51,082 nucleotides of DNA. Source: an uncultured archaeon A07HR60. GTDB lineage: Archaea; Halobacteriota; Halobacteria; Halobacteriales; Haloferacaceae. The position numbers and the translations under genes are program-made. The notes under the pieces were generated by a model. The model did no database searches. It was given only the letters and a program-made list of their open reading frames with translations, and had not been told where the DNA came from. This document shows positions 1,875 to 10,400 of this stretch, in pieces. The DNA is taken from assembly GCA_000496235.1 (NCBI GenBank), contig KI543233.1, positions 130,559 to 181,640 on the forward strand, in the 5' to 3' direction. Every line of letters starts with the position of its first letter. Position 1 is the stretch's first letter.

Positions 1875-4800
1875 ATGTCGGGTTTCCAGTCATCGCTCGG
1901 CGAAGACGAGGGGATCGCCGAAGAGTTGGCAGAAAGCCAGCGAGCGATTTCTATTGCCGAGTTTTTCGAAAAGAACAAGCACATGCTGGGCTTCGACTCG
2001 GGCGCCCGAGGGCTGGTCACGGCGATCAAAGAAGCCGTGGACAACTCTCTTGATGCGACCGAGGAAGCCAATATCCTGCCGGATATTTACGTCGAAATCG
2101 CCGAGGCAGGCGATTACTACAAACTGATCGTTGAGGATAACGGTCCCGGTATCACCAAAGAACAACTTCCGAAGGTGTTCGGGAAGCTACTGTACGGGAG
2201 TCGGTTTCACAAACGAGAGCAATCGCTACCGCCAGACCAGACACTGCTCGTCCGTGAGGACGGCGAGGCGAAGCTCCTGTCTATCGGCGACCTGTGTGAC
2301 CGATATCTCCCCGACGAAGGGGCGTCGACACAACCTGTCACCGACCAACTCGAAGCACCCGCGTTTACCCGTGATAGCCATCAGACTGGATGGGAACCAG
2401 TCACCCACGCGATCCGCCACGAGACGGCAGCAGACACGTATGCGGTTACGACCGAGCTAGGCCGGACAGTCGAGGTGACAGGAAATCACAGTCTCTTCGC
2501 ACTGACCGACGCCGGGGAAACGACAGAAGTCGATGCGGGTGAGATAAAGCCAGGAGACGAAATCTTGGCTCCAGCTCGATTACCTCGGGCTGGCGACCCG
2601 GTAGAGCAGCTGAATCTTCTGACCCAGGTGGGACAAGAGCGACTGTCGGGTTCGGGGCTGATGGTATTCGGATTCGACGAATCCACGGTGGACAGCTTGC
2701 CATCTACGACTGCTGTGGAAGGGGGAGCAGTTCCGGCGGTAGACATCGTTCAGGCTGGTCTAGCGGGTGAAGTAGCCGAGCAGGAGTGTCTCATCGGGTT
2801 TTCTCGCCGCGCTGGCCCGAGCGACAGTCTCAAACTCGAACAAGAGTCAAATCACGAGCCGGTCGTAGACGAGACCACCACGACGGATATTCGATTGCCC
2901 GTCGAAATCGAGCCTAGCGGTTCATTCGCACGGTTTTTGGGGCAATTCCTCGTATCTGAGGGAGTCGGGTCTGCCGTGGATGCGCTCAAAGAGCATGTTA
3001 CTCTCCAATCTGATCCGACGGCAAGACCAATAGCCGATGGCGGAGTGATGCCGGGCGACGCAGTGTCACCGGGTGGTGACGTCAATGCGCTCACACGGAT
3101 AGCCTCGATTCTCGGAGTAGGCCTCTGTGGGACCGGCGCTGAAAGGCGCGTTCCGCAGTACCTATTTTGTGCCTCAGAGAAGTCTCAGCAGGCATTCCTG
3201 GCCGGCTTGCACGGCGTTGAGGATGTGACAGAGCCGAGTGAGAGCCGACTCACATTTGGGACCAGTATCGACACCCTTCGCAGTCAGGTCTCGATTCTGT
3301 GGAGCATGCTCGGGGTGACTGCTGGAAGTCCAGACGCCGAGTCTCCGTCGGATGCAGATCATCGAATCGCGGTTGGTCCGTCCCGCTGCAGGTCCGATGC
3401 GTTCGGCCACTCCTCACCGAGCGCACGTCGAGACGCGAATGAGCAACTGGACGAGACCAACCAGGCGCTGAAGGGGACGGATATGCGACTGCTGGAGGTA
3501 GAGTCAGTTGAGCAGACCGCTCCGCCAGAGTACGTGTACGACATTTCAGTGCCGGGTGCCAACGGTGATGATGAAAACTTTGTCGTCGCCAACGACGGCC
3601 CAATATCGGTCAAAAACAGCCGCGGCCAACAGGGGATCGGAATCTCTGCAGCTGTGTTATACTCACAGCTGACCTCGGGGAAACCTGCGAAAATCACCTC
3701 TCGGCCCAAAGGAACTGAGACGGCTCAGTACTTCGAGTTGATAATCGACACCGATACGAACGAGCCGGAAATCAAGGCTGAATCCGAGACTACGTGGGAT
3801 CGACCCCACGGGACCCGGATCGAATTGGAGATGGAGGCCAACATGCGAGCCCGGCAGCAACTCCACGATTATATCCAACACACAGCCGTCGTCAACCCTC
3901 ACGCCCGGATCGAACTCAGAGAGCCGAAACTATCGGAGCCGAAGAAATTTGAGCGGGCGACAGATCAGCTTCCCGACGAAACCAGCGAAATTCGACCCCA
4001 CCCTCACGGGGTGGAACTGGGGACGCTGATCAAGATGCTGGAATCAAGCGATTCGTACTCGCTGTCAGGCTTCCTGCAGAGTGAATTCACGCGGGTCGGG
4101 ACGAAAACGGCCGACTCGGTGTCGGACGCCTTCCGTGACCGTTACTTTGGACGCGAGTTCTCGTGGACACCTCCTGCAGCCCACGACCCAGTCGATATCG
4201 CGGCTGCTGTCACAGAGGCTGTCTCGAACAAGGGAGCAGCCGCGACCGAAGACTTCGCCGACACAGTTGCTAATCAGATCAGCAACCACGACCGGATCGC
4301 GCATCATCAAGTGGTCGAGATTGTCGAAGAGACGGCCAAAGAGGTGGCGGCAAGCCACGACCGCACCTTCGGTGCGACGGTCAGGGAAAATGCCATCGCG
4401 GCCGCCTGGGGGCAAGTCACAGCCTTCGGTAGCGGTGATGCTGATTCTCCCGATAGCGGAGAGGAGACTCCCGATCAGATCAGCCCCGACGTGTACAATC
4501 TCATCGACCAGGTGACCGGCAAACGGAAAGATGACGCCACTGTGACGGCGCTGGCGAAGGCGTTGGCCCGCCGGCTGGTCGACCGTGGGGAAACCCGCGG
4601 TCGCATCACACAGGAGCAACTGGAACGAATCGCCGATGACGCCGCAGAGTTCGTCATCGATCAGCGGGACGCGACCATCGGTGATACGGCCCGCGAGAAG
4701 ATTGTCACTGCGCTGGCCGAGGTGACGACGACTGTCCCAGACGACCCGCCGGCTGTCACCGAGATAGCCGAGAGCCGGGACACTGCGAGCGAGCTGTTAG

Positions 4801-5714
4801 AGGCGATGCAGGAGACGGACATTCTCTCGCCACCGACCGACTGTCTGGCCCCAATCACAGCGGACCTGCTTGAGGCGGGTCTGCGCAAAGAGTTCGATGC
4901 GGACTTCTTTGCGGCCGCTACCCGGGACGCGGAGGTACATGGCGGTGATCCCTTCATCGTTGAGGCGGGGGTCGCTTACGGCGGCGAAATCGAGAGTGGT
5001 TCCGTGGAGGTCATGCGATTCGCTAACAGGGTTCCGCTGGTGTACCAGCGGGGTGCCTGTGCTACGACGGACGTCGTCAAACAGATTGGCTGGCGCAATT
5101 ATGGGCTTGACCAGCCCGGCGGGGCCGGGATTCCCTCGGACCAAGCAGTCATCATGGTCCATATCGCCTCGACGAACGTCCCGTTCACGAGCGAGTCGAA
5201 AGACGCTGTCGCGAACGTGCCCGAAATCGAGGACGAAATCGAACTGGCGATCCGAGAGGCGTCTCGTGAGTTGAAGTCGTATCTCAACAAACGGCGGTCG
5301 CTGAAGAAACGGCGGAAAAAACAGGATGTCCTCGGCCGGATCCTCCCCGTGATGGCGGACAAAGTATCGGAGGTGACCGAGCGGAATCGCCCGGAAATCG
5401 ACGGAGCGATGGCGCGGATTATGAACAATCTCAGCGTCAAGCGGGCCCGTGAGGGCGATGAAATTTCGCTGTCGGTGCACAATTACTCGGACACCACAGA
5501 ATCACCGGAAGTAACCGAGATTCTGGACACAGAACCCACCGAGGTGAGCGATGGGGCCACTGCCGTCGAGATGGATGGTGAGTGGTTCCTCAACTGGGAG
5601 CCGACGGTGTCGAGCGGCGAAACAGCCGAACTGACGTATTCGGTGCCAGATGCCTCCGATTTCGAGCTGATGGTAGAGGGTGTCGAAGACGAGAAACTGA
5701 CCGTGGAGACATAA
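1875..5714 (+). CDS. top6B: DNA topoisomerase VI subunit B with intein
   Basis: ATPase subunit of the archaeal type IIB topoisomerase, which relaxes and decatenates DNA as an A2B2 complex. The 1279-residue product contains a 465-residue intein (residues 117-581). The spliced protein would be about 814 residues. The GHKL ATP site has the N-box EAVDNSLDA (53-61) and VEDNGPGI (86-93); the G2 lid SRGQQGIG (582-589) follows the intein directly, so an intact ATP site requires splicing. The transducer domain follows, with a conserved stretch [16 protein letters not shown] near 5083-5130, a basic region [12 protein letters not shown] and a C-terminal Ig-like extension. top6A begins 4 nt after the stop, so the two are surely co-transcribed. 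Confidence 0.97.
2223..3617 (+). other. Intein in Top6B, degenerate homing endonuclease
   Basis: 465-residue in-frame insertion (Top6B residues 117-581) between REQ and SRGQQG. It starts with Ser in a block-A-like [15 protein letters not shown]. Block B carries TGNH (His205). Block F is VYDISVPG followed by NFVVAND. It ends GPISVKN with Ser as the +1 extein residue. The penultimate residue is Lys rather than the usual His. A central endonuclease remnant is suggested by [10 protein letters not shown] (354-363, block-C-like) and [11 protein letters not shown] (441-451, block-E-like), where the usual acidic-glycine pair is not preserved. Splicing may still work; I infer that homing activity has been lost. 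Confidence 0.92.
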
Positions 5715-8440: not shown

Positions 8441-8525
8441 TTTCGTGGGTCAATCCCCTTGAGCGTGGCTTCAACGAACTGTGATGGAGGTGATATCCGT
8501 TCCAGATGGCAGAACGCGACAGCGT

Positions 8526-8700
8526 TTGACATCCTCCCACGGCTGAAGCCGTGGGATTCCTCTGTGGGGATATTGGCTATGCCGTTTCCCCGGAGGCAAC
8601 TTTCCCATCTCGGTGGACGGTACTCTGGTCTGTGCGCTGCTCTTTGGGACTTTCCCGCGTGGGAGAGTGTGATGACTCCGACCATTCGTGGTCGTCCCAC
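8526..8700 (-). ncRNA. Putative omega-RNA/sotRNA at the tnpB 3' end
   Basis: In haloarchaea, IS1341-type tnpB genes give rise to sense overlapping RNAs at their 3' ends. In related systems these end in the right-end hairpin followed by a guide copied from flanking DNA. The hairpin is at 8536-8555. The guide, if any, would be the flanking sequence below about 8526. Only the hairpin is visible; the 5' limit given is a guess. Confidence 0.4.
8536..8555. repeat. Right-end palindrome of the tnpB element
   Basis: CCCACGGCTGAAGCCGTGGG, an 8-bp stem with a four-base loop (palindromic apart from the centre). It is the classic haloarchaeal IS1341 right-end hairpin and would lie in the 3' end of the tnpB-associated RNA. 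Confidence 0.9.
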
Positions 8701-9932
8701 TCGAACCGCACGGGCCGTGCCATCGGCCTGACTTCTGTCTGCGTGTGCCGCTTCAAGAACGTTTCTGACGCCGTGAGGTCGGCGTGGCCCTCGAACCCAC
8801 ACGGGCAAGTGAGTGTGTCCTGATGTCGAGTTGTTCGATCTGTTGAGCCACACTGAGGGCACTCACTGCTCGTCCAGGCTTCTGACTGAACCCCAACTGA
8901 AATCCCGTACTCTTCGGCAGTACACGCCAGTCGCTTGCTGAATTTTTTGAACGCCCAGAAATTGTGAGTCTTGGCGTTGGTTTCGGCTGACCAATGCGCG
9001 TCTAACACATCAGTCAGGTCGCCGATATACACCGTATCCACGCCCTCAGCGTATAGCCGTTCCAACAGCTCACGACACAGCGCCTCTTGGGCGTGATCAC
9101 GGCGACAAGTTCGTTTGCGATACAACCGCCGGATGCGCTTGCTACTATATTGGTCCTCTTCGAGTTTGGACTGTAGCCGAGCGATCTCTCGTGTCGTTTC
9201 GCGGAACCGCTCGAACAACAGACGGCCTTCGTACAGGTATTGCTCGCCGGTCGTGGTCGTACAGGCGACGAGATTGTTTACACCAATGTCCAGAGCGGCC
9301 GTTTCATCGGCCAGTGGAGTCTCCCGTGCATCGTCAGAAACAGTCACGGGTTGCGAAGCTCGGAACGTGTAATTAGTCTCGTCGTACCACAAATCCAATC
9401 GGCTTTGATCCTCGTAGTCAGGCCAGTTCGGCTCGCCAACGATTTCCAGCCGAAGACGACTCTTTGGGCTGTTGTGCTTATTTCGGAGGTCTGCTCCGAC
9501 AAGTATCTCAAGCCGGGATCGGCTGCCCCACTCGACAGAGTATGCGTCCTTCCGAATGACGCTTTTGAGAACACGCCCATCATCTTTGTTGCCACGGAAG
9601 CCTGGCGGCTCCGGGTGTTCCGTGACCGACGTGTTTGACTCGTCGTGATACGCCTTCTTTGTCCTGAAAAATCCACGCCATGCCTCGCTGTTCTTCGCAA
9701 TCACCTGTTGAGCAGTGGAGCCGCCAAGAACGCCTTTATATTTGCCTTCGAGATGCCCGGTGTCGGCGTCCCACACGTCTTCATCTTCAAAGCCGTCTTT
9801 ACCGTTGTACCGCATGAGTCGTTGATAATTTACCTCATTCCAGAGGGAAGCAGAAGCGTCCAACACATTCCGTAGTACCTGCTCATCGTCGTCAGTGAGC
9901 GGGCGCACGGAGAACGTGTTGGTCCGCTTCAT
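8577..9932 (-). CDS. tnpB: TnpB, RNA-guided nuclease family (IS1341 type)
   Basis: 451-residue TnpB homologue, full length and without frameshifts. RuvC-I Asp215 is in ALDIGVNN. The RuvC-II position reads VYIGDL (301-306), with Gly304 where the family normally has Glu. The zinc ribbon has Cys358, Cys361, Cys376 and Cys378, and RuvC-III has Asp385 in GHADLTAS. The tail is Ser/Pro/Arg-rich, as in other haloarchaeal members. Proteins of this family act as RNA-guided DNA nucleases that help retain the element. The missing glutamate makes activity here uncertain. It is transcribed away from the 43-residue ORF, with 42 bp between the two starts. Confidence 0.93.
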
Positions 9933-9974
9933 GACAACAGATGCTTATACTTTCAGTCTTAAAGACCTTACGTC

Positions 9975-10106
9975 ATGCGCCCTAACATCGACATCACCCA
10001 CACACTCGGTGGCCGAATCAAAGACTACGCAGAAGAGAACGATTTGGACCTGTCAGAAGCTTATACAAAAGTGTTGGAAGCAGGGTTGAACGAGCTAGAA
10101 GCATAA
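9975..10106 (+). CDS. 43-residue ribbon-helix-helix-like protein inside the IS
   Basis: Complete small frame that starts MRPNIDITHTLGGRIKDYAE and ends LEAGLNELEA. A basic N-terminal strand followed by two helices, with a KVLEAGL-type second helix, resembles ribbon-helix-helix DNA-binding proteins. Its start is 42 bp from the divergent tnpB start, so a DNA-binding product could repress both promoters. Good codon use and an ordinary ATG support it. I infer the fold from pattern only; no ligand or target is known. Confidence 0.7.
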   Translation: MRPNIDITHTLGGRIKDYAEENDLDLSEAYTKVLEAGLNELEA

Positions 10107-10157
10107 ATATCCGGATTTACAACGGCTCGTGGGTTAATTCCCAGTTGTCAGATTCAC

Positions 10158-10177
10158 CCCACGGCTCAAGCCGTGGG
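10158..10177. repeat. Left-end palindrome of the tnpB element
   Basis: CCCACGGCTCAAGCCGTGGG. It differs from the right-end palindrome at 8536-8555 by a single base in the loop. The matching pair marks the approximate limits of the element and is what a single-strand transposase would recognise. Confidence 0.9.
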
Positions 10178-10400
10178 CTCTCTCTTTGACTATCTGTAGG
10201 CCCACACCAGGCCAACACTCCTGCCGCAAGGTGGTGGACACCCTCCGGAATCCAGTGGTGGGTTTAATCTGTCAGCCAAGCCCTGAGACGAGTCTCGCTT
10301 CCGTCGCTTCCACAGCGAGAGAGTCGCTTCACTCGGGAGTCACATTCGGAGACCGGCCTTGGCGACCCTGATAAGGAGTACTCACAGATTGACGGGTGGA

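What the first reader, a model, noticed from the sequence alone, without database searches (positions are those of the whole stretch)
8577..9932. TnpB lacking the RuvC-II glutamate
Seen: Asp215 and Asp385 are present, but the position expected to hold Glu reads VYIGDL (Gly304). Established: RuvC nuclease activity needs the D-E-D triad, and nuclease-dead TnpB relatives have become RNA-guided repressors in bacteria. Inference: this protein, in an otherwise intact frame, may bind guided DNA without cutting. From memory, GDL here occurs in other haloarchaeal tnpB genes, so it may define a clade rather than decay.
Basis: partly seen in the sequence, partly recalled or inferred. Interest (0 to 1): 0.6.

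Follow-up and report, generated by a model that had tools for sequence, protein, structure and literature searches.

The report
TnpB with a relocated catalytic glutamate
The transposon nuclease TnpB here has not lost its third catalytic residue: the glutamate missing from the usual place sits about 47 residues further on, a published alternative layout shared with eukaryotic Fanzor nucleases, so it is most likely an ordinary working RNA-guided DNA cutter.

Summary
A 451-aa TnpB lies at 9932..8577 on the minus strand, with D215, D385 and Gly304 where TnpB/Cas12f align their RuvC-II glutamate. The nuclease-dead reading does not follow. E351, in [11 protein letters not shown], has exactly the spacing of the published alternative glutamate "Ealt" (Fanzors and some TnpBs; PMC10711439). 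In 74 haloarchaeal sequences (window plus 73 relatives), G304, E351 and D385 are invariant. Among 66 scorable TnpB ORFs of the host genome, 44 carry Glu only at the canonical place, 22 only at the alternative place, none both and none neither. The gene is under purifying selection (dN/dS 0.12-0.16). The omegaRNA 3' hairpin covaries, transposon ends are present, and guides differ between loci, as in a mobile element rather than a fixed-target repressor. The glutamate has moved, not vanished; the arrangement is known. Not shown: cleavage, or the active-site geometry (the AlphaFold RuvC domain was low confidence). Two minor new points: the clade's second zinc knuckle is CxC, so the published Ealt pattern misses all 74; and the window's element, like many without TnpA, carries a divergent, conserved, unannotated 43-aa ORF resembling ribbon-helix-helix repressors.

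The parts
8577..9932 (-). tnpB gene, 451 aa, RNA-guided endonuclease TnpB family (Ealt type)
   Evidence: Open ATG-to-TAG frame; NF040570 guided_TnpB 146.7 bits against cut-off 100; PF01385 and PF07282 over cut-off; dN/dS 0.12-0.16
9288..9290 (-). codon of catalytic Asp215 (RuvC-I, D-I-G)
   Evidence: D in 73 of 74 aligned sequences
9021..9023 (-). codon of Gly304, the place where canonical TnpB has its RuvC-II glutamate (Ecan)
   Evidence: Aligned to Glu of Cas12f; G in 74/74
8880..8882 (-). codon of Glu351, the alternative RuvC-II glutamate (Ealt)
   Evidence: 74/74 invariant; E + 6 residues + CxxC as in PMC10711439; present only where Ecan is absent
8799..8861 (-). zinc-finger region C358-C361 ... 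C376-C378 (CxxC, then CxC)
   Evidence: All four cysteines invariant in the 53-row alignment; second knuckle CxC
8778..8780 (-). codon of catalytic Asp385 (RuvC-III)
   Evidence: 74/74 invariant; start of helix 384-397 in the model
8536..8555 (-). 3' hairpin of the omegaRNA scaffold / right-end palindrome
   Evidence: 34 distinct hairpins from 75 loci; every stem position paired in 27-34 of 34, with pairs swapping identity (G-C/C-G, C-G/A-U)
8526..8534 (-). right end of the element, ...GGATGTCAA, last scaffold bases before the guide
   Evidence: Similarity between copies stops at about 8526; GGATGTCA(A/T) kept in nearly all loci while the following sequence differs
8506..8525 (-). inferred guide (ACGCTGTCGCGTTCTGCCAT), flanking DNA read out of the right end
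   Evidence: Position by analogy with IS200/IS605 TnpB; unique flank at each locus; length of 20 nt is assumed
10158..10177 (.). left-end palindrome CCCACGGC-loop-GCCGTGGG
   Evidence: Sequence; same palindrome in L060, L079, L002
10196..10199 (-). left boundary, CTAC; candidate target-site/TAM tetranucleotide
   Evidence: Similarity between copies starts at about 10199; CTAC or CTAT at this point in most relatives inspected; role inferred
9975..10106 (+). divergent 43-aa ORF, ribbon-helix-helix-like, inside the element
   Evidence: Conserved in 21 of 80 genome-contig loci; dN/dS 0.03-0.09; weak hits mostly to RHH proteins

Best explanation
An IS200/IS605-type (IS1341-like) transposon without tnpA, about 1.67 kb (8526-10199). 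Its TnpB is an RNA-guided DNA endonuclease whose RuvC triad is D215-E351-D385. The glutamate comes from the loop between the last RuvC strand and the zinc finger instead of from the end of the earlier strand where Gly304 sits. The RNA cut from the 3' end of the tnpB transcript (covarying hairpin, GGATGTCAA, then guide) directs it to a site next to the target tetranucleotide, probably the emptied donor site, which it cuts so that repair restores the element. Shown: the residues, their conservation and mutual exclusion, the conserved RNA hairpin, the ends, and purifying selection. Inferred: the position of E351 in the metal site, cleavage, the guide and the TAM.
For: Glu351 is invariant in 74/74. 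One-genome census: 44 Glu304-only, 22 Glu351-only, 0 both, 0 neither (Fisher p 5e-18, not corrected for shared descent; the tree needs only 1-2 changes). Spacing fits the published Ealt layout: D-I-G, 133 residues, E, 6 residues, CxxC, 14 residues, knuckle, 6 residues, D (against PMC10711439). The model's strands and helices place G304 at the end of strand 300-304, E351 just after strand 345-348 and before the zinc finger, and D385 at the start of helix 384-397, which is the order given for the Fanzor/TnpB/Cas12a triad in PMC11423790. An active Fanzor uses D383, E541 and D606 to hold Mg2+ (PMC10432273). dN/dS 0.12-0.16 for tnpB, lowest over the RuvC half in the closest pair (0.10). Ks drops from 0.33 to 0.09 in the last 51 codons, as expected where the omegaRNA overlaps the gene. 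The hairpin covaries. Guides differ at each locus. Sister elements with the same Gly304/Glu351 carry tnpA (37 loci).
Against: No cleavage data for any member of this clade. Purifying selection would also be expected for a domesticated binder.
Confidence: 0.88

Rival explanations
1. Nuclease-dead TnpB that works as an RNA-guided DNA binder or repressor (TldR-like).
For: Canonical Glu replaced by Gly. A divergent, putatively DNA-binding ORF is associated with the gene, and TldRs are known to gain gene partners (PMC13418256).
Against: A replacement Glu is invariant and strictly anticorrelated with the canonical one. All three acidic residues stay conserved, which a binder would not need. Transposon ends and right-end hairpins are kept, and guides differ at every locus.
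Confidence: 0.04
2. The rearranged site is functional but altered, for example nicking, slower, or with other metal preferences, giving a guide-directed nickase or a roadblock rather than a double-strand cutter.
For: The Glu comes from another loop, and published Fanzor work shows that changes in the triad tune activity and metal use (PMC11423790).
Against: Nothing specific; Fanzors with Ealt make double-strand breaks.
Confidence: 0.06
3. Decaying pseudogene: the substitution is loss of function by drift.
For: TnpA is absent from the element, and several paralogues in the genome are truncated.
Against: Intact frame, dN/dS 0.12-0.16, invariance of G304 and E351 across genera.
Confidence: 0.02

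Closest known systems
D-Phi-G / Ealt TnpB clade of Yoon et al. 2023 (PMC10711439)
   Same: DIG at RuvC-I, no Glu at the canonical RuvC-II place, Glu six residues before the CxxC zinc motif, Asp after the second knuckle; TnpB with a 3' omegaRNA.
   Different: Second zinc knuckle is CxC, not CxxC, so the published search pattern does not match (0 of 74; 73 of 74 when relaxed). The papers found here do not discuss haloarchaeal members.
Fanzor1/Fanzor2 and pro-Fanzors
   Same: Relocated RuvC-II glutamate.
   Different: They have DPG at RuvC-I; this protein has DIG. They are eukaryotic or IS607-linked; this is archaeal and IS200/IS605-like.
Canonical TnpB (ISDra2, ISFba1) and Cas12f
   Same: Family membership by HMM; best structure matches are AsCas12f and TnpB.
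   Different: They carry the Glu at the canonical place (E of 'MEDL') and Pro or another residue at the Ealt place.
TldR, TnpB-like nuclease-dead repressors (Wiegand et al. 2024; PMC13418256)
   Same: TnpB fold; partner gene nearby.
   Different: TldRs have inactivated RuvC; here the triad is complete by relocation, and the element looks mobile.
IS1341-type tnpB-only elements of haloarchaea and their sotRNA/omegaRNAs (PMC3119063, PMC12558985)
   Same: tnpB without tnpA, palindromic ends, sense-overlapping 3' RNA.
   Different: Rfam scan of the locus gave no match to any sotRNA family, even at E up to 1; extra divergent ORF.

Membership tests
TnpB (RNA-guided endonuclease TnpB family) | Scores over the curated HMM cut-offs | tested here: met
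   NF040570 146.7 vs 100 bits; PF01385 105.2 vs 30.5; PF07282 46 vs 26.3
TnpB (RNA-guided endonuclease TnpB family) | Complete acidic RuvC triad | tested here: met
   D215, E351, D385 conserved; the Glu is at the alternative place; geometry not measured
TnpB (RNA-guided endonuclease TnpB family) | omegaRNA overlapping the 3' end, guide outside the right end | tested here: met
   Covarying 3' hairpin and conserved GGATGTCA, divergent flank; Ks drop. RNA not observed
TnpB (RNA-guided endonuclease TnpB family) | RNA-guided DNA cleavage | not testable with these tools
   Needs biochemistry
Ealt TnpB (Yoon et al. 2023) | Glu six residues before the first zinc CxxC and none at the canonical place | tested here: met
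   E351-AWTSSE-C358PQC; G304
Ealt TnpB (Yoon et al. 2023) | Full published pattern D{P}Gx(120,160)ExxxxxxCxxCx(12,18)CxxCx(4,8)D | tested here: not met
   Only the second CxxC fails (it is C-P-C); with CxC allowed the pattern fits 73 of 74. The pattern was a search tool; the defining Ealt position is met
Fanzor / pro-Fanzor | DPG at RuvC-I together with Ealt | tested here: not met
   D215-I-G217
TldR (nuclease-dead TnpB repressor) | Inactivated RuvC site | tested here: not met
   Replacement Glu invariant and complementary to Ecan
TldR (nuclease-dead TnpB repressor) | Loss of mobile-element ends and a conserved guide | tested here: not met
   Both palindromic ends present in the window; guide-position sequence differs at each locus

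The most novel reading that the evidence does not exclude
The haloarchaeal Ealt TnpB elements without TnpA form a two-gene cassette in which a divergently transcribed small RHH-like protein (two sequence families in the same position) represses tnpB or binds the transposon end, replacing TnpA as the partner. TnpB with the relocated glutamate stays an active cutter under its control.
Probability: 0.3. Interest if true: 0.45.

Novelty: new member of a known kind. Interest (0 to 1): 0.2.

Why it matters
It is a useful caution: calling TnpBs 'dead' from the canonical glutamate alone gives false positives. In this one genome a third of the scorable TnpB ORFs (22 of 66) would be miscalled. The CxC zinc knuckle also shows that the published Ealt search pattern undercounts archaeal members. 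If the small RHH-like partner proves functional, it would offer a simple archaeal case of regulated TnpB.

Tried and rejected
Another residue filling the canonical place: D305 next to G304 varies (D/G/A/Y), so it is not a substitute. E341 is invariant, but the aligned Cas12f sequences also have Glu there and keep the canonical Glu too, so it is not the replacement. Structure superposition: the 53-sequence AlphaFold model reached only pLDDT 62.7 / pTM 0.51 with a poor RuvC core, and no coordinates were available to measure distances; fold search recovered Cas12f, TnpB and Fanzor2 but adds little beyond family. Viral contigs: no relative with the single protein, one with the alignment (L140). 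Empty insertion site: no genome lacking the element but holding both flanks was found, so the TAM stays inferred. Rfam: only two sub-threshold palindrome matches, to an unrelated family. Altae-Tran et al. 2023 (PNAS), cited elsewhere as the TnpB/Cas12 diversity census (reference list), is not held in the library; I recall that it describes rearranged TnpB catalytic sites, but could not check it.

Full report
What is there. The window holds a complete tnpB of 451 codons on the minus strand, 9932 to 8577. It scores over the curated cut-offs of NF040570 guided_TnpB, PF01385 and PF07282. Copies in other genomes are similar from about 10199 to about 8526 and diverge outside, so the element is about 1.67 kb. 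It has a palindrome near each end (10158-10177 and 8536-8555) and no tnpA.

The observation. Asp215, Gly304 and Asp385 are as described. In a profile alignment with Cas12f structures Gly304 lies opposite the catalytic glutamate of the M-E-D-L motif. This is not an accident of one sequence: in 74 full-length haloarchaeal sequences (the window and 73 relatives) Gly304 never varies, while residue 305 does.

Why the nuclease is probably not dead. The same alignment shows a second invariant acidic residue in the right region: Glu351, in [12 protein letters not shown], is Glu in 74 of 74. Yoon et al. 2023 (PMC10711439) define two layouts of the RuvC-II glutamate: canonical, about 50 residues before the zinc finger, and alternative (Ealt), six residues before it. 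They found Ealt in Fanzors, in pro-Fanzors and in a further clade of TnpBs with a D-Phi-G RuvC-I motif. The window protein has D-I-G, 133 residues, E, 6 residues, CxxC, 14 residues, a zinc knuckle, 6 residues, D. The only departure from their search pattern is the second knuckle, CxC for CxxC.

Census in one genome. The host genome (2.88 Mb, 14 contigs, 82% complete) has 77 TNB-domain matches. I fetched those not yet held, extracted the frames and aligned them with the window protein. Of 66 frames in which both positions could be read, 44 have Glu at 304 and not 351, 22 have Glu at 351 and not 304, none has both and none has neither. The Fisher p of 5e-18 ignores shared descent: on a tree built without these two columns the trait needs one to two changes, so the statistical weight rests on few events. 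The main point is qualitative: no TnpB in this genome with both positions readable lacks a RuvC-II glutamate. Two caveats: four frames (L016, L021, L023, L174) have two extra residues between the Glu and the zinc motif, and I read that Glu as the same one by alignment; and fragments and frames running into N were left out.

Structure. The order of elements agrees with the published description (PMC11423790): Asp on the second strand, Glu in the loop between the fifth strand and the zinc domain, Asp on the helix. In the model G304 ends strand 300-304, E351 follows strand 345-348, and D385 begins helix 384-397. In SpuFz1, D383, E541 and D606 hold the magnesium ions (PMC10432273); I did not verify that E541 is the Ealt residue by my own alignment and rely on PMC10711439 for the Fanzor layout. 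Fold search finds Cas12f, ISDra2 TnpB, ISFba1 TnpB and mimivirus Fanzor2.

Selection and RNA. tnpB evolves under purifying selection against six relatives (dN/dS 0.12-0.16). In the closest pair (93% identity) Ks falls from 0.33 in the RuvC half to 0.09 in the last 51 codons, as expected where a conserved RNA overlaps the gene, though only three synonymous changes are counted there. The hairpin after the stop codon covaries: 34 distinct hairpins from 75 loci, with every stem position paired in 27-34 of them and several positions exchanging G-C, C-G and A-U. It is followed by GGATGTCA(A/T) and then by unrelated sequence at each locus. That is the layout of a TnpB omegaRNA with a locus-specific guide. 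A domesticated repressor would be expected to keep one guide and to lose the transposon ends. The RNA itself was not observed, and Rfam has no match here, even at E up to 1.

Mobility. Relatives at 56-62% identity with the same Gly304/Glu351 layout carry a Y1-type tnpA directly upstream (37 of 80 loci) and form one clade. So the layout is found in complete, TnpA-bearing transposons.

Conclusion. What it works like: an RNA-guided RuvC endonuclease of the TnpB kind. Membership: TnpB, yes; Ealt layout, yes by its defining position; published Ealt pattern, no, by one residue; Fanzor, no (D-I-G); TldR, no. The finding is a correct observation with an already published explanation.

A side observation worth keeping. 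The window's element carries a divergently transcribed 43-codon ORF (9975-10106) within the element. Homologues occur in the same orientation, mostly 40-60 bp upstream of tnpB, in 21 of the 80 loci, with dN/dS 0.03-0.09 in four comparisons with the window. Its conserved pattern fits a ribbon-helix-helix protein; the weak family hits are mostly to RHH proteins (TraM, ORF56, RelB-like antitoxin, MatP) and the weak fold hits likewise (CopG, Arc, MazE6 N-terminus), all below significance. In PLSDB plasmids it is called 'hypothetical protein' or is not annotated. A second, different family of about 45 codons with similar character sits in the same place in L043, L046, L047, L049, L050, L052, L094 and L132. 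It does not occur with TnpA in these loci. One paper search for TnpB with ribbon-helix-helix found nothing on such a link. Its function is unknown to me; autorepression of the divergent tnpB promoter is the simplest guess.

Noticed in passing
window 9975-10106 (+), and loci L060-L096, L002, L003, L055, L057, L058: Divergent 43-47 aa ORF resembling ribbon-helix-helix repressors, conserved next to tnpB in elements lacking tnpA; dN/dS 0.03-0.09; unannotated or 'hypothetical' in public plasmids.
   Followed up: partly
L043, L046, L047, L049, L050, L052, L094, L132, about 50 bp upstream of tnpB: A second, different family of about 45-aa divergent ORFs (e.g. MATTVQIEIEDDDQYERLRAIKRHNGLTWKGMLLHAAENLDTPD) in the same position.
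   Followed up: partly
host genome G000: 77 TNB-domain (TnpB-like) matches in 2.88 Mb but a single Y1 TnpA, an extreme excess of tnpB over tnpA.
   Followed up: partly
C376-P-C378 (window 8799-8807, minus strand): Second zinc knuckle of this TnpB clade is CxC; the published Ealt search pattern therefore misses 74 of 74 members.
   Followed up: yes
L016, L021, L023, L174: Ealt-type TnpBs of the same genome with two extra residues between the glutamate and the zinc motif; L021 also has Glu in place of the RuvC-I Asp.
   Followed up: no
window 1875-5714 (+): DNA topoisomerase VI subunit B (1279 aa) interrupted by an intein splicing domain (residues about 165-573).
   Followed up: no
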